Below, piece after piece: positions 1,971 to 8,165 of a stretch of 36,631 nucleotides of DNA. How positions within the stretch are numbered: the first letter of the stretch is position 1; each line of letters starts with the position of its first letter. The position numbers and the translations under genes were made by a program. The DNA is from Anaerolineae bacterium (GTDB taxonomy: Bacteria; Chloroflexota; Anaerolineae; Aggregatilineales; Phototrophicaceae), in the NCBI GenBank assembly GCA_019912985.1, contig JAIOHN010000880.1, positions 1-36,631 on the forward strand, written 5' to 3'. The notes beneath the pieces were generated by a model, which saw only the letters and a program-made list of their open reading frames with translations, searched no databases and was not told where the DNA came from.

Positions 1971-3788
1971 TTATCCGAGCGGCTCCTGGGTGGCACAAAT
2001 GCCCGAAAAGCTCACGGTGACGACCTTTGTTGCCGTACCCGTTTGTCCATTGGATGTCTCTGCTTGCAGACGAACGGTAAAGTTAATCTGCTGGAAATCA
2101 TTACCATCATCCCCAAGCCGTTGATATACGTGGGTTGGGTTTTCGGCAGTATCGGTGGTGTCATCACCAAAGCTCCAGAAGAAGACATCCGCACCCTCTG
2201 ACAGGTTCGTGAACTGGACGGTGGCTTCACAGGCTCCGCCCTGCCCCGGTGTAGCCAGGAAGTCCACATCCAGGTTGCAGTTGGGGTTAAATTCGAACTG
2301 AACGGTCACCTGAGCCGTGGTGCTGTCGGACAAGTCGCCTTGTGCAGCGGTCAGCCGGACGGTATATGTCTGCTGTGGGACCTGTGCTGACTGCACCGGC
2401 AGCAGGATGGCGCTTACCCTATCAAAGGTATAGACATGAACCGGATTACGCTCAGTACTGGTGGTGCCATCACCGAATTCCCACAGGTATTGATCAGCAT
2501 TTTGCGAAAGATTGCTGAAGGCGATTGCCCGGGCATAAACACCACAGAACTGCCCTGGTGGCAGGACGATTGGATTAAAGATGAATGCAGCCTGTGGCGC
2601 AGGTACCGGTGAAACTGGCAAACGCGGGAAACAAACAGTTTGTCCGGTCTGGATGATATTGGCATTTGGCAAGCAGTTCACCTGCTGCACCTGCTGGGCG
2701 CTCACCTGAGCCAACTGCGCCAACCGCCCCAATGAATCGCCCGGTTTCACAATATAACTGGGCCAGCCAAGCGCTCCACACTGGTTCACGCAGGCGGTAG
2801 GGGTAACTGTTGGCGAGGGTGTCGGCGTTCGTGATGGCGTTAACGTTGGCGTCCGTGAAGGGATACGGGTGCTGGTCACAAGCGTTGTGGTACTGGTCGC
2901 CGTGATCGTCGGGCTTTCTGTCGCCGTCAGCGTGAGTGTTTCTGTGGGTGTGGCAGTTTCGGTCACGATGGCTGTTTCTGTCGGCGTCAGTGTGAGTGTT
3001 TCCGTGGGTGTGTTGCTCGGTGCCGCAAAAGGTGTAAAAATACCTGCCGCATTGGCCGCCACTACAGCCGCTGCCCCACAAAGCAGCAACAACAGCAGCA
3101 ACAAGGGGATCAGCAGCCCGTAACGAGGCCGCACCCGCACCGTAATATCGGTAAAAGCGTCATTTCCTTGATTAGTGAGTGCGAATATCCGCAGCGGAAA
3201 GCTGCCCCCGGTCCAATAGGAACGCCGTTTATTCACGCGCAGCGACACATCCAGCGCTTGCTGTGGTGCCACATAGCCTTCATCAGGTTGCAAAACCACT
3301 TCGAGGCCATCTGTGTCGGTTTCGGTGCGCAGCGATACCGTCTGGGGTTCGGCCCCACGGTAGTAAATATGAACAGTGGCATTTTCGCCGGGATAAATTT
3401 CATCTGGCTCGGCCACCAGTTGCAGACTGGAAGCGGCGACGGGTACCGCCTCTGGCACAGTCGCCCCCACTGGTGCCAGCGCGCTCAGTTCAAAGCGCAG
3501 ATCGCCAATCATCATGGTGACACTGGGCTGCCATTCCTGGCGCGTGTTGGGCGGAATAGGCCGCCCGTTGAGTGTCACCCCATTTTTGCTGGCAAGATCG
3601 GTGACATATACGCGGTTATTAATGAGTTCGACGCGCGCATGCTCACGCGATATATAAGGAGAGTCGACACGAATATCCGCATCAGACGCCGATCCCAGAA
3701 TCATGGACGCACTGGTCAAGCGAGCGGTGGCAAATGCACCACCCCCTGTCGCATATCGAATCACGTATTCCGGCGAATTAGTAGACAT
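1971..3788 (-). CDS. FHA domain - TM - Thr/Pro stalk - LysM - two PKD-like repeats protein
   Basis: FHA motif (ILGSASDADIRVDSPYISREHARVEL..TDLASKNGVTLNG); TM RPRYGLLIPLLLLLLLLCGAAAVVAA; LysM YIVKPGDSLGRLAQLAQVSAQQVQQVNCLPNANIIQTGQTVCFP; PKD signatures WEFGDGTTSTERNPVHVY and WSFGDDTTDTAENPTHVY. Confidence 0.9.
   Translation of the reverse strand: MSTNSPEYVIRYATGGGAFATARLTSASMILGSASDADIRVDSPYISREHARVELINNRVYVTDLASKNGVTLNGRPIPPNTRQEWQPSVTMMIGDLRFELSALAPVGATVPEAVPVAASSLQLVAEPDEIYPGENATVHIYYRGAEPQTVSLRTETDTDGLEVVLQPDEGYVAPQQALDVSLRVNKRRSYWTGGSFPLRIFALTNQGNDAFTDITVRVRPRYGLLIPLLLLLLLLCGAAAVVAANAAGIFTPFAAPSNTPTETLTLTPTETAIVTETATPTETLTLTATESPTITATSTTTLVTSTRIPSRTPTLTPSRTPTPSPTVTPTACVNQCGALGWPSYIVKPGDSLGRLAQLAQVSAQQVQQVNCLPNANIIQTGQTVCFPRLPVSPVPAPQAAFIFNPIVLPPGQFCGVYARAIAFSNLSQNADQYLWEFGDGTTSTERNPVHVYTFDRVSAILLPVQSAQVPQQTYTVRLTAAQGDLSDSTTAQVTVQFEFNPNCNLDVDFLATPGQGGACEATVQFTNLSEGADVFFWSFGDDTTDTAENPTHVYQRLGDDGNDFQQINFTVRLQAETSNGQTGTATKVVTVSFSGICATQEPLG
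2915..3012. repeat. Imperfect 38-bp direct repeat (period 60 bp) in the Thr/Pro stalk of the FHA-LysM-PKD gene
   Basis: tttctgtcgccgtcagcgtgagtgtttctgtgggtgtg (2915-2952) and tttctgtcggcgtcagtgtgagtgtttccgtgggtgtg (2975-3012), three differences. Confidence 0.8.
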
Positions 3789-4798: not shown

Positions 4799-5248
4799 AT
4801 GATCATTCTCAAGTGGCACTATAACGACGAACTCCATAAAGAAGCCTTCGGCAAAGAAAGACCAATTACGATTGGGCGTTCCAACAGCGCTGACATCGTG
4901 CTGGAGGGCAATGCACAGGTTTCGCGCAGTCATGCGTCCCTGTATTACAAGGACAATCAACTGCACATTCTCAACCTGAGCAAGAAGAATCCAGTGGATG
5001 TTCAGAACAGTGATAAGCATCGCCGCCTGAACAGTGATGACGATGCCGTGCTGGAAGAAGGCGCAATTTTCCGCATCGGCCCGGCGCAGTTCCAGGTCGT
5101 TTCGCTGGAACCCGAACCGCACGATGGCGAATTGATGGTGCAATGTCCCAAGTGTGGCCGCTACTGGCCCGCCAGCAAGCTGGACTGTCCCATTGATGGC
5201 TGGTCGCTGGCGAATGCACGAACCGTTCGCTGGCCGCTGGAACAGTAA
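4799..5248 (+). CDS. FHA domain protein with C-terminal zinc-ribbon-like CPKC...CP segment
   Basis: ITIGRSNSADIVLEGNAQVSRSHASLYYKDNQLHILNLSKKNPVDV is an FHA core; C-terminus VQCPKCGRYWPASKLDCPIDGW. Purine-rich RBS gagaggggg precedes ATG 4799 (ORF opens at 4775). Confidence 0.85.
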   Translation: MIILKWHYNDELHKEAFGKERPITIGRSNSADIVLEGNAQVSRSHASLYYKDNQLHILNLSKKNPVDVQNSDKHRRLNSDDDAVLEEGAIFRIGPAQFQVVSLEPEPHDGELMVQCPKCGRYWPASKLDCPIDGWSLANARTVRWPLEQ

Positions 5249-5259
5249 GGAGGTAAACC

Positions 5260-7293
5260 ATGATACGAGTAACCTGGCAAGACCTGGACAGCGGTCAGCA
5301 CGGTGATTATGAGGGCGAGCTACCCGTAACGATCGGGCGGCAAGCTGGGAACAGCATTGTGCTGCCGAGCAATCATGTCTCGCGGGAGCACGCCCGAATT
5401 GAAGAGAGTGGCAGTGGCATCGTTATCAACGATCTGGGCAGTCGGAACGGGATCGTCGCCAATGGGCGGCAGGTCACGCAGCTCAATTTGCGGAATGGCA
5501 CACAGTTTCGCCTTGGCCCATTTGAATTCACGATCCATCTCGAAGAAGCAGCGGCGGATGATGCGACGGTCGCCTATGACTTTGAAACCATTCGCGAAAA
5601 CGAGGACGATACGGCTTACTTCAACTCACCTCCTCCACCCACTCAACAAGCTGCCCAACCGCAGCAACCCGTGCAAAGACCTGTGCTGGATAAATCCACC
5701 ATCGTGATCGACAAAGTGGAGCCAATCGACGATGCGGTATTCCGCACACGCGAAAACAAGGTCGAACGTTTCCCACCAGGAAGCTTCTACCAGCAGGTAG
5801 TGTCTGTCGCGGAGTTGCGCTCCCTCGGCCTGCCAATTGAAGAAGTACCCTATCTCGCCGTTGGCGGCGGCATGGGCAGCTTTATCTGGGTCGATCATTT
5901 GCGCGTGTTCGGCGTCAAGCCGGATCAGGTGCGAGCGATTGGCTTTGAGCCAAAGCCATATGGTCGCTACCGCCGCCTGTGTCAGAACTCCCAGATCCCG
6001 GATCACGAGCGTTTGCGCAGTGACTCCGGCTCAACACCAGATAACGTCTGGGGTTGGCCGGGCTATGCCATGCGCGAGGCCGTGACGGACCTGGGCAAAG
6101 GTAAGGTCGGTCATTCATTTGCGGTGGTCCGGCAGATCTTCGGTGAGCCGACTTTTTCAGACACCTACACCCCCATCTCGGGACGCGTCTTTGAGTCAGT
6201 TGACCGTGAAGCAGCACGAATCGGGTGGGATCAAATCTGGAAACCCGGACGTATCCATGCTATTCGCAAAACGGATGATGGGCGCTACGCCGTCGCCTAT
6301 TCGGCGGGTGAAATTTCGCGCCCAGGCGTTCACAGCATCATCCTGGCAAAATATATCCATCTGGCGGTTGGCTATCCAGCCATTCGCATTCTCTCGGACC
6401 TGCAGGAATATCGCGAAAACACAGGCGATTTCCACCGGGTGGTCAATGCCTATGAAGAACATGATCATGTCTATCGCGAGTTGGAACGCAACGGCGGCAC
6501 GGTCATGGTTCGCGGGCGCGGCATCGTTGCCTCGCGCATCATTCAGCGGCTGTTCGAAGCGCGCCATGTGAATCCCAATATTGGCGTTCTCCACCTGATG
6601 CGAACCCCGGTCAAGGAAGGGAAGCATTTTGGGCGCGCAAAGCGACTGGTAAAAAGTCATTGGGAATTCCAGCCGTTCAACTGGCCCAAAGCCTGCTGGG
6701 GTGGCACACTGCGCAACAAACTGGAACGCGCAACCGATGCCGAGCGCTCCAAGCTGCTCGATCAATGGGGCGGCACGACGACGGCTGACCGTGTAGACTG
6801 GCAGCAGATCACCCGCGTAGGCCTCGAAGAAGGCTGGTATGACATCTCCTTCGGCGAGGTGCAGTGTGTAGAGCAAGATCCCAGTGGCAAGGTCGTCACA
6901 CGGGTCAAAGGCAATGCCAACCTGCCCCCGGCCAACTATGTCACCGATTACATCGTTGATGCGACCGGTCTGGAAGCTGGGTTGGATAGCAATCCACTGC
7001 TGCATGACCTGCTCACGCACTACGGGCTGCGCCGCAACAGCAAAGGCCGTCTGTTCGTCACCAATCAGTTCGAGATCGAGGGGATGCGCAATCACGATGG
7101 ACGCATGTACGCCTGTGGTGTGATGACCCTGGGTGGTCCATACGCCGCAGTCGATAGCTTCCTCGGCTTGCAGTATGCGGCCCTCCAATCAGTCGATGAC
7201 CTCAAACACAATCGTGCGCCGGGAGTCCGTGGTTTGAACGGGTTCCGGTCTGTACGACAGTACCTACGCTGGACGAGAGGAGCACAACCATGA
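5260..7293 (+). CDS. FHA domain fused to a FAD/NAD(P)-binding oxidoreductase-like protein
   Basis: N-term FHA (VTIGRQAGNSIVLPSNHVSREHARIEESGSGIVINDLGSRNGIVANG); Pro/Gln linker; Rossmann-like YLAVGGGMGSFIWVDHL, second GRGIVASRIIQRLFEA, and VTDYIVDATGLEAG (ATG motif of flavoproteins). RBS aaggagg upstream. Confidence 0.8.
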   Translation: MIRVTWQDLDSGQHGDYEGELPVTIGRQAGNSIVLPSNHVSREHARIEESGSGIVINDLGSRNGIVANGRQVTQLNLRNGTQFRLGPFEFTIHLEEAAADDATVAYDFETIRENEDDTAYFNSPPPPTQQAAQPQQPVQRPVLDKSTIVIDKVEPIDDAVFRTRENKVERFPPGSFYQQVVSVAELRSLGLPIEEVPYLAVGGGMGSFIWVDHLRVFGVKPDQVRAIGFEPKPYGRYRRLCQNSQIPDHERLRSDSGSTPDNVWGWPGYAMREAVTDLGKGKVGHSFAVVRQIFGEPTFSDTYTPISGRVFESVDREAARIGWDQIWKPGRIHAIRKTDDGRYAVAYSAGEISRPGVHSIILAKYIHLAVGYPAIRILSDLQEYRENTGDFHRVVNAYEEHDHVYRELERNGGTVMVRGRGIVASRIIQRLFEARHVNPNIGVLHLMRTPVKEGKHFGRAKRLVKSHWEFQPFNWPKACWGGTLRNKLERATDAERSKLLDQWGGTTTADRVDWQQITRVGLEEGWYDISFGEVQCVEQDPSGKVVTRVKGNANLPPANYVTDYIVDATGLEAGLDSNPLLHDLLTHYGLRRNSKGRLFVTNQFEIEGMRNHDGRMYACGVMTLGGPYAAVDSFLGLQYAALQSVDDLKHNRAPGVRGLNGFRSVRQYLRWTRGAQP

Positions 7294-7697
7294 CCCCGAC
7301 TTTAGGTGGACGCTGGCAATCGCGGATTTTCATTTTAGGCACAGCCGGGCTCATCGTCACCCTGCTCTTCGGAGCCGTGATCGGCAACTACGTGACCCCC
7401 CTGCTCATCCTGGGTGTGGTGATCGTCGCCGGCTTTTTCTGGGACGCGCTTTATACGTTTCTCCAGACTTACCGCTGGGATCAGGACTGGCCGCCAGCCT
7501 ATGTGCTGTTCGCGGGCATCTTCGAGGGCATTATGGCCGGAATCATTATCAATGTGATCCCGGGCTTCCCACTGCCTACGATCGGACAGTTTGTGGTCCA
7601 TTACTCTCTGGTCTGGATCGCGAGCTACATCATGCAGTTCAGCATCATGCGTGTGCTGTTCCCGCGCTGGCGCTATTATGGCGGGCGCGTTGTTTGA
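7290..7697 (+). CDS. Small integral membrane protein (about 4 TM), unknown function
   Basis: Hydrophobic helices IFILGTAGLIVTLLFGAVIG, LLILGVVIVAGFFWDALY, AYVLFAGIFEGIMAGIIINVI; overlaps the upstream FHA-flavoprotein gene by ATGA (7290-7293). Confidence 0.75.
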   Translation: MTPTLGGRWQSRIFILGTAGLIVTLLFGAVIGNYVTPLLILGVVIVAGFFWDALYTFLQTYRWDQDWPPAYVLFAGIFEGIMAGIIINVIPGFPLPTIGQFVVHYSLVWIASYIMQFSIMRVLFPRWRYYGGRVV

Positions 7698-7722: not shown

Positions 7723-7750
7723 GAGACCGCCTTCGGGCGGTCTCATTTTG
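7723..7750. terminator. Intrinsic-terminator-like hairpin GAGACCGCC-TTCG-GGCGGTCTC followed by ATTTTG
   Basis: 9-bp perfect stem (7723-7731 / 7736-7744) with TTCG tetraloop and a T-rich tail; located at the convergent junction of the 7290-7697 (+) and 7743-8165 (-) genes. Confidence 0.8.
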
Positions 7751-8165
7751 ATTGGGTACAGGGATAACGTCCAAAAGCGATGAGGCCACGTCGTTCCTCG
7801 ATTTGCTCACTGCGGTTAAGCCGCAGCAAACGCACCGTCACTCGTCCCTCTGGGGTCAATGGTTCGATCACTGGACCATCCAGGCGGAAATGATCTCCCC
7901 AACTTTGAATACGTGGATTATACAGAGCGGTAAGTTTGCCAGTCTCGCGATCAATCGAACCGATGTCGCTCCCCTTGTAGCTGTTACAGTTGGGACAACT
8001 CAAGGAGAGGTTTTCCAAAACGGTCTCTCCCTCATGTTTTTCAGCGATCACATGATCAACCTGAAATGAAAAGGTGCTGTCTTCCTGGCTAAGTAAGCAG
8101 TATTCGCAGCAATTGCCTGCTCGCTCAATCACCTGTCGACGTATCTCTACACCGATATAAGTCAT
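7743..8165 (-). CDS. HNH endonuclease family protein
   Basis: RAGNCCEYCLLSQEDSTFSFQVDHVIAEKHEGETVLENLSLSCPNCNSYKGSD: CxxC...DH...CPNCNxxKG HNH signature. Confidence 0.9.
   Translation of the reverse strand: MTYIGVEIRRQVIERAGNCCEYCLLSQEDSTFSFQVDHVIAEKHEGETVLENLSLSCPNCNSYKGSDIGSIDRETGKLTALYNPRIQSWGDHFRLDGPVIEPLTPEGRVTVRLLRLNRSEQIEERRGLIAFGRYPCTQSK

What the first reader, a model, noticed from the sequence alone, without database searches (positions are those of the whole stretch)
4799..7697. FHA-flavoprotein operon: FHA/zinc ribbon, FHA fused to a FAD-dependent oxidoreductase-like domain, and a small membrane protein
Three tightly packed genes (12-nt gap, then ATGA overlap). The second fuses an N-terminal phosphothreonine-binding FHA domain by a Pro/Gln linker to about 500 aa carrying two dinucleotide-binding glycine motifs (AVGGGMGSF, VRGRGIVAS) and a flavoprotein ATG motif (VDATGLEAG). 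FHA domains normally recruit Ser/Thr-phosphorylated partners, so the fusion suggests redox chemistry gated or localised by protein phosphorylation. The coupled 4-TM protein could be a membrane partner. I know of no characterised system of this make-up.
Basis: partly seen in the sequence, partly recalled or inferred. Interest (0 to 1): 0.72.

Follow-up and report, generated by a model that had tools for sequence, protein, structure and literature searches.

The report
FHA-fused flavoenzyme with membrane partner
A three-gene cassette, found mainly in cyanobacteria and patchily in Chloroflexota, joins a phosphothreonine-reading FHA domain to an uncharacterised FAD/NADPH enzyme that almost always travels with a small membrane protein, which suggests an oxidation or reduction step at the membrane controlled by protein phosphorylation.

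Summary
Genes are g1 4799-5248 (FHA + Cys cluster), g2 5260-7293 (FHA, Pro/Gln linker, ~510-aa flavoprotein-like region) and g3 7290-7697 (4-TM; ATGA overlap). No family library names the g2 C-terminus, but an alignment-based AlphaFold model (pLDDT 85, pTM 0.87) matches class B flavin monooxygenases of the N-hydroxylating branch (SidA/PvdA/KtzI; Foldseek E 8e-18, target TM up to 0.75). The FAD and NADPH glycine motifs, an Arg aligned with the NADP-phosphate-binding Arg of SsDesB, and the late TG motif are invariant; ornithine/lysine-site motifs are not kept, so the substrate probably differs. FHA is fused in nearly every homologue outside one actinomycete; pThr-contact residues are 90-100% conserved. 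g2 occurs in 61 of 386 cyanobacterial genomes and g3 in 61, shared in 60, even when unlinked; the one g3 without g2 is broken. Ser/Thr kinases flank 9 of 11 Chloroflexota loci. Best reading: a kinase-controlled, membrane-docked FAD/NADPH enzyme (class B-like) with the 4-TM protein as obligate partner. Substrate and reaction are unknown. Plant zeaxanthin epoxidase is a known FHA-flavoenzyme fusion, but of a different enzyme class and domain order. New variant of a known kind.

The parts
4799..5248 (+). g1: FHA protein with C-terminal Cys cluster
   Evidence: Pfam FHA E 3e-11 at aa 23-94; homologue directly upstream of g2 in 79 of 108 loci, not deduplicated
4865..5080 (+). FHA domain of g1
   Evidence: G34 R35 V49 S50 H53 (first-sequence numbering) invariant
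5144..5197 (+). zinc-ribbon-like CPKC-x(n)-CPID of g1 (fourth ligand Asp; CxxC in most homologues)
   Evidence: no significant Pfam match
5260..7293 (+). g2: FHA - Pro/Gln linker - class B-like FAD/NADPH flavoprotein, 677 aa
5326..5517 (+). FHA domain of g2 (aa 23-86); R27, S41, R42, H44, N63 kept
   Evidence: Pfam E 1.3e-15; 90-100% conserved in 111 FHA copies
5620..5697 (+). Pro/Gln-rich linker
   Evidence: read from sequence
5863..5880 (+). FAD-binding motif GGGMGS (aa 202-207), counterpart of GxGxGP of N-hydroxylating monooxygenases
   Evidence: invariant G202, G204, G206, S207; fold
6364..6378 (+). AVGYP motif (aa 369-373; HLATGYP in many homologues), end of first FAD half-domain
   Evidence: G371 Y372 P373 invariant
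6514..6534 (+). NADPH-binding motif GRGIVAS (aa 419-425)
   Evidence: aligned by hhalign with GxGQSAA of N-hydroxylating monooxygenases; G419, G421, I422, V423, S425 invariant
6601..6603 (+). R448, candidate NADPH 2'-phosphate-binding Arg (R-S/T-P motif)
   Evidence: invariant; aligned with the RS of the NMO profile; R223/S224 of SsDesB bind the NADP phosphate (PMC8009421)
6958..6972 (+). DATGL motif (aa 567-571), counterpart of ATGY
6973..7290 (+). [quoted passage not shown]
   Evidence: collinear in hhalign and model
7290..7697 (+). g3: 4-TM membrane protein, 135 aa
   Evidence: no Pfam match; hydropathy; 61 genomes with g2, 61 with g3, 60 shared
7290..7325 (+). N-terminal motif MTPTLxGRWQ(T/S)R of g3; T2 and L5 could form a pThr-x-x-Leu FHA ligand
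   Evidence: T2 in 86 of 87, P3 and L5 in 87 of 87 unique sequences; the one exception (Ile) is the copy whose g2 lacks FHA
7476..7493 (+). WDQDWP motif in the predicted cytosolic TM2-TM3 loop of g3
   Evidence: W63, D64, D66, W67, P68 98-100% conserved

Best explanation
g1-g2-g3 encode a phosphorylation-controlled, membrane-docked flavoenzyme. The C-terminal ~510 residues of g2 form a class B-like two-dinucleotide-domain flavoprotein (an FAD domain split by an NADPH domain) that most likely uses NADPH to reduce FAD and oxidise a substrate, as a monooxygenase or closely related oxidoreductase, but not on ornithine or lysine. g3 is its obligate membrane partner; its conserved cytosolic face (MTPTLxGRWQTR, WDxDWP, MRxxFPxWRxxGG) would dock the enzyme or present a membrane substrate. 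The FHA domains of g2, and of g1 where present, bind threonine-phosphorylated protein(s) made by Ser/Thr kinases, often encoded next door, and so set where or when the enzyme works. Shown by computation: domains, fold, conserved cofactor motifs, pThr-contact residues, g2/g3 co-inheritance, kinase neighbourhood in Chloroflexota. Inferred: bound cofactors, catalysis, direct g2-g3 contact, pThr dependence, substrate.
For: Fold: AF2 on a 40-sequence alignment, pLDDT 85, pTM 0.87; 47 of the 50 best PDB matches are N-hydroxylating monooxygenases (SidA, PvdA, KtzI, DfoA, NbtG, DesB), E down to 7.9e-18, TM about 0.60 by query and up to 0.75 by target. Collinear profile alignment to genuine NMOs over 296 columns, E 0.001. 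69 invariant columns including a 39% identical actinomycete homologue. FHA fused in almost all homologues with pThr residues conserved. g2 in 61 and g3 in 61 of 386 cyanobacterial genomes, 60 shared, Fisher p about 2e-68 without correction for kinship, including genomes where the two genes are unlinked; the lone g3 without g2 carries stops. In Nonomuraea the FHA-less enzyme and g3 are adjacent with a TTGA overlap. Kinases lie within about 3 kb in 9 of 11 Chloroflexota loci, 3.5% expected per locus from the window genome's kinase density.
Against: No biochemical data. The hhalign probability is only 22%; the assignment rests mainly on the fold match, and query TM 0.60 with rmsd 5-6 A leaves parts unmatched. 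Kinases are not adjacent in the window or in most Nostocales loci. g1 is absent directly upstream in 29 of 108 loci. In the window's own phylum only 3 of 400 sampled genomes have a close homologue, so it is an accessory function. g3 has no conserved Cys and only one mostly conserved His, so nothing ties it to redox chemistry directly. The FHA-less homologue shows that phosphorylation control is not needed for the core pair.
Confidence: 0.55

Rival explanations
1. The flavoprotein part has lost catalysis and serves as an NADPH/redox sensor: cofactor binding changes its conformation and the FHA domains report it to a phosphorylated partner.
For: Active-site positions of N-hydroxylating monooxygenases are not kept; FHA and kinases suggest signalling.
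Against: 69 invariant columns spread over the whole domain, including both cofactor motifs and many polar residues outside them, resemble a working enzyme; a conserved membrane partner is not needed for a sensor.
Confidence: 0.15
2. It is a two-dinucleotide-domain NADPH:acceptor oxidoreductase (thioredoxin reductase / NDH-2-like) passing electrons to quinone or another membrane carrier near g3, not a monooxygenase.
For: The remaining 3 of the 50 best fold matches are dihydrolipoamide dehydrogenase; obligate membrane partner.
Against: No CxxC redox pair among the invariant residues; the best matches are all monooxygenases; g3 has no conserved Cys or pair of His haem ligands.
Confidence: 0.2
3. 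It is a true ornithine/lysine/diamine N-hydroxylase of a siderophore pathway that has gained an FHA domain.
For: Closest solved folds are SidA, PvdA, KtzI, DfoA, DesB.
Against: Does not match Pfam Lys_Orn_oxgnase or an NCBIfam enzyme family; the SFLKDL and NTNYS substrate-site motifs are absent; no siderophore genes were recognised among recurrent neighbours.
Confidence: 0.05
4. The FHA domains serve only as constitutive protein-protein modules that assemble g1, g2 and g3, without phosphothreonine.
For: In g1 the usual Asn-Gly pair is often Asn-Pro; the FHA-less homologue keeps the g2-g3 pair.
Against: Arg, Ser, His and Asn-Gly contacts are 90-100% conserved in the g2 FHA; kinases are enriched nearby in Chloroflexota.
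Confidence: 0.2

Closest known systems
N-hydroxylating class B flavin monooxygenases (SidA, PvdA, KtzI, DfoA, DesB)
   Same: Overall fold and order FAD half - NADPH domain - FAD half; GxGxG(P/S) and GxGxxA motifs; Arg-Ser/Thr at the NADP phosphate site; late TG motif
   Different: About 13% identity; substrate-binding motifs absent; FHA fused at the N-terminus; membrane-protein partner; not in recognised siderophore clusters
Plant zeaxanthin epoxidase (FAD monooxygenase with C-terminal FHA domain)
   Same: FHA joined to an FAD monooxygenase that works at a membrane and is discussed as phosphorylation-regulated (PMC12570779)
   Different: Class A-type monooxygenase (from general knowledge), FHA at the other end, eukaryotic, no g3; the window protein shows no match to FAD_binding_3
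Bacterial FHA adaptor systems (OdhI/GarA, FhaA-MviN, Rv1747; from general knowledge)
   Same: FHA reads Ser/Thr-kinase output to control an enzyme or membrane protein
   Different: There the FHA is a separate adaptor or fused to a transporter, not fused to a FAD/NADPH enzyme
Chloroflexota flavoproteins at L012-L014 / L161-L163
   Same: Weak sequence similarity over the second half (E 1e-5 to 1e-7); the two tested match NAD_binding_9 / Pyr_redox_2
   Different: No FHA found, open frames of 429-486 aa, only 21-24% identity

Membership tests
FHA domain (PF00498) | Significant match and conserved GR / S-R-x-H / N-G phosphothreonine contacts | tested here: met
   E 3e-11 (g1), 1e-15 (g2); residues 90-100% conserved in g2 FHAs
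FHA domain (PF00498) | Binds phosphothreonine peptide | not testable with these tools
   needs a binding assay
Class B flavin monooxygenase (two-dinucleotide-binding-domain flavoprotein) | FAD domain split in two by an inserted NADPH domain | tested here: met
   model and Foldseek, collinear hhalign; architecture definition from PMC4981433
Class B flavin monooxygenase (two-dinucleotide-binding-domain flavoprotein) | GxGxx(G/P) FAD and GxGxxA NADPH motifs, Arg at the 2'-phosphate site | tested here: met
   invariant in 41 sequences; the FAD motif has Ser in place of Gly/Pro at its last position
Class B flavin monooxygenase (two-dinucleotide-binding-domain flavoprotein) | Oxygenates a substrate through C4a-hydroperoxyflavin | not testable with these tools
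   needs enzymology
SidA/IucD/PvdA N-hydroxylase (PF13434) | Match to the family model | tested here: not met
   PF13434 not among families matched by any of 40 members at E 0.1; none for the window protein
SidA/IucD/PvdA N-hydroxylase (PF13434) | Ornithine/lysine-site motifs (SFLKDL; NTNYS) | tested here: not met
   absent; the GGTTT stretch aligns near NTNYS
Zeaxanthin epoxidase | Class A (PF01494) FAD monooxygenase followed by FHA | tested here: not met
   no PF01494 match; FHA lies at the N-terminus
Zinc ribbon (g1) | Two CxxC knuckles | tested here: inconclusive
   present in most homologues, window has CxxC and CxxD; no significant Pfam match

The most novel reading that the evidence does not exclude
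The FHA domain of g2 recognises a phosphorylated Thr2 in the N-terminal tail of its own membrane partner g3 (M-pT-P-T-L, a pThr-x-x-Leu site), so that a kinase switches the assembly of a membrane-bound class B-like flavoenzyme: a bacterial flavoenzyme whose membrane docking is a phosphothreonine switch.
Probability: 0.15. Interest if true: 0.78.

Novelty: new variant of a known kind. Interest (0 to 1): 0.6.

Why it matters
It is a widespread (about one in six sampled cyanobacterial genomes), apparently uncharacterised enzyme-membrane protein pair with a phosphothreonine reader built in. It gives a concrete, tractable link between Ser/Thr kinase signalling and flavin redox chemistry at a bacterial membrane, in cyanobacteria whose kinases have few known outputs. 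Picosynechococcus PCC 7117, a relative of the laboratory strain PCC 7002, carries the triplet with a kinase gene next to it, so it can be tested in a cultured strain.

Tried and rejected
Pfam, NCBIfam and PDB-sequence searches of the g2 C-terminus gave nothing significant; a single-sequence AF2 model was useless (pLDDT 33). Weak per-member hits to SLOG (LSDAT_prok), Trp_halogenase and FAD_oxidored were not pursued because the fold gave a clear answer. A viral origin was rejected: BFVD matches were weaker (best E 1.1e-9, TM 0.34-0.53) and partial. Ornithine N-hydroxylase identity was considered and rejected on motifs. An explanation of the conserved MT... start of g3 by the ATGA overlap was rejected: g3 copies away from g2 keep MTPTL. 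Searches for homologues in the phyla of the Rhodothermaceae and 'proteobacterium' loci found only the starting genome. Literature searches for FHA with flavoprotein, monooxygenase, cyanobacteria or zinc ribbon found no description of this triplet. FHA double copies and a g2-g3 in-frame ORF were noted, not analysed further.

Full report
OBSERVATION. The three ORFs are present as described: g1 4799-5248, g2 5260-7293, g3 7290-7697, all on the + strand, with an 11-nt gap and an ATGA overlap. FHA domains are significant in g1 and g2; nothing in Pfam or NCBIfam covers the rest of g2 or g3.

FOLD OF THE g2 C-TERMINUS. Sequence searches against solved structures failed. An alignment of 40 homologues (A1; identities to the window protein 47-61%) gave a confident AlphaFold model, pLDDT 85.1 and pTM 0.87. 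Foldseek against the PDB returned the ornithine N-hydroxylases SidA, PvdA and KtzI and the diamine hydroxylases DfoA and DesB as best matches (47 of the best 50; the other three are dihydrolipoamide dehydrogenase), E down to 7.9e-18, TM about 0.60 by query and 0.66-0.75 by target for most, 12-14% identity. These are class B flavin monooxygenases, defined by an FAD domain split by an inserted NADPH domain (PMC4981433). A profile comparison with real N-hydroxylating monooxygenases aligned 296 columns collinearly (E 0.001, probability only 22%) and placed GRGIVAS on the NADPH motif GxGQSAA and DATGL on ATGY. In the same alignment the conserved R-(S/T)-P of the family (R448) falls on the R-S of the NMO profile; in SsDesB this Arg and Ser hold the NADP phosphate (R223/S224, PMC8009421). 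The substrate-site motifs of the ornithine/lysine enzymes are not kept, and PF13434 is not matched. So it appears to work on a class B-like scaffold but is not a member of the SidA/PvdA family.

DISTRIBUTION AND PARTNERS. Homologues are mainly cyanobacterial: most of 43 loci in GTDB species genomes and 61 of 386 sampled cyanobacterial genomes, against 3 close homologues in 400 Chloroflexota counting the window's own and only the starting genome in two other phyla. The FHA is fused in nearly all intact copies, twice in four of them. g3 was searched independently in the same 386 genomes: 61 positives, 60 shared with g2, Fisher p about 2e-68 ignoring kinship. In several genomes g2 and g3 lie far apart yet both are kept; the single genome with g3 but no g2 has a broken g3. 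In Nonomuraea gerenzanensis an FHA-less g2 homologue (39% identity, beside a DUF4253 gene) is followed by g3 with a TTGA overlap. The core is therefore the flavoprotein plus the 4-TM protein; FHA is an added layer in Cyanobacteria and Chloroflexota. g1 homologues stand directly upstream in 79 of 108 loci (loci from two collections, not deduplicated), slightly displaced in others, and no clear g1 was found in six genomes of the Dolichospermum/Aphanizomenon type.

SIGNALLING CONTEXT. The g2 FHA keeps R27, S41, R42, H44 and N63-G64 at 90-100%. Ser/Thr kinases, confirmed by Pfam or by catalytic motifs, lie within about 3 kb of 9 of 11 Chloroflexota loci; the kinase density of the window genome (23 over the cut-off in 7.28 Mb) predicts about 3.5% per locus (binomial p about 4e-12, or 5e-8 if the true rate were 10%; L036 and L038 are close relatives, so the loci are not fully independent). 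The window itself and most Nostocales loci have none nearby.

g3. Hydropathy and the positive-inside rule give four TM helices with N- and C-terminus in the cytosol. Conserved residues cluster on the predicted cytosolic side: MTPTLxGRWQTR, WDxDWP and MRxxFPxWRFxGG. There are no conserved Cys and one mostly conserved His, so it is more likely a dock or substrate gate than an electron carrier (inference). T2, P3 and L5 are kept in 86, 87 and 87 of 87 unique sequences; T2 is replaced by Ile only in Nonomuraea, whose enzyme lacks FHA. T2-x-x-L5 would fit a pThr-x-x-Leu FHA ligand; this rests on one natural exception and is offered as a hypothesis.

MECHANISM (inferred). A Ser/Thr kinase phosphorylates a membrane-linked partner (possibly g3 itself or the kinase); FHA domains of g2 and g1 bind it; the flavoenzyme, reduced by NADPH, then acts on a substrate at the cytosolic membrane face with g3. 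What is shown is the fold, cofactor motifs, co-inheritance and kinase neighbourhood; what is not shown is flavin, catalysis, substrate and phospho-dependence.

COMPARISON. FHA fused to a flavoenzyme is not unprecedented: plant zeaxanthin epoxidase carries a C-terminal FHA whose role is unresolved (PMC12570779). The bacterial protein differs in enzyme class, domain order and obligate membrane partner. No paper in the searched library describes the triplet; that library is limited to open-licence PMC papers. Verdict: a real, conserved, apparently uncharacterised system; new variant of a known kind.

Noticed in passing
window 1971-3788 (-): Another FHA protein close by on the opposite strand: FHA, a membrane helix, Thr-rich stalk, LysM and two PKD repeats, apparently a cytosol-to-outside signalling or wall-binding protein.
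   Followed up: partly
L054 9374-11581 / L158 (Planktothrix): A second g2 copy, truncated by about 130 residues, runs in frame into g3 as one 735-aa ORF, while a complete copy exists elsewhere in the genome.
   Followed up: no
L024, L029, L034, L160 (= L011): g2 carries two N-terminal FHA domains in tandem in three Chloroflexota and one Rhodothermaceae locus.
   Followed up: no
G788:C1:3657581-3658011: Cyanobacterial genome with a g3 interrupted by stops and no g2: parallel decay of the pair.
   Followed up: no
L017, L018, L021, L022 between g2 and g3: In Nostocales, genes resembling a CPBP-type membrane protease and a GDSL-type lipase stand between g2 and g3 (families judged by eye, not scanned).
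   Followed up: no
L035, L040, L042, L045, L047, L048: A short secreted-looking protein with a YHS-like sequence recurs downstream of g3 in about ten cyanobacterial loci (not scanned).
   Followed up: no
window 14681-36563: Sugar-use region: ABC transporter parts, LacI regulator, FGGY kinase, GalK, GalT and a GH4 glycosidase, ordinary.
   Followed up: partly
window 7743-8165 (-): HNH endonuclease-domain gene just downstream of g3 on the opposite strand.
   Followed up: no
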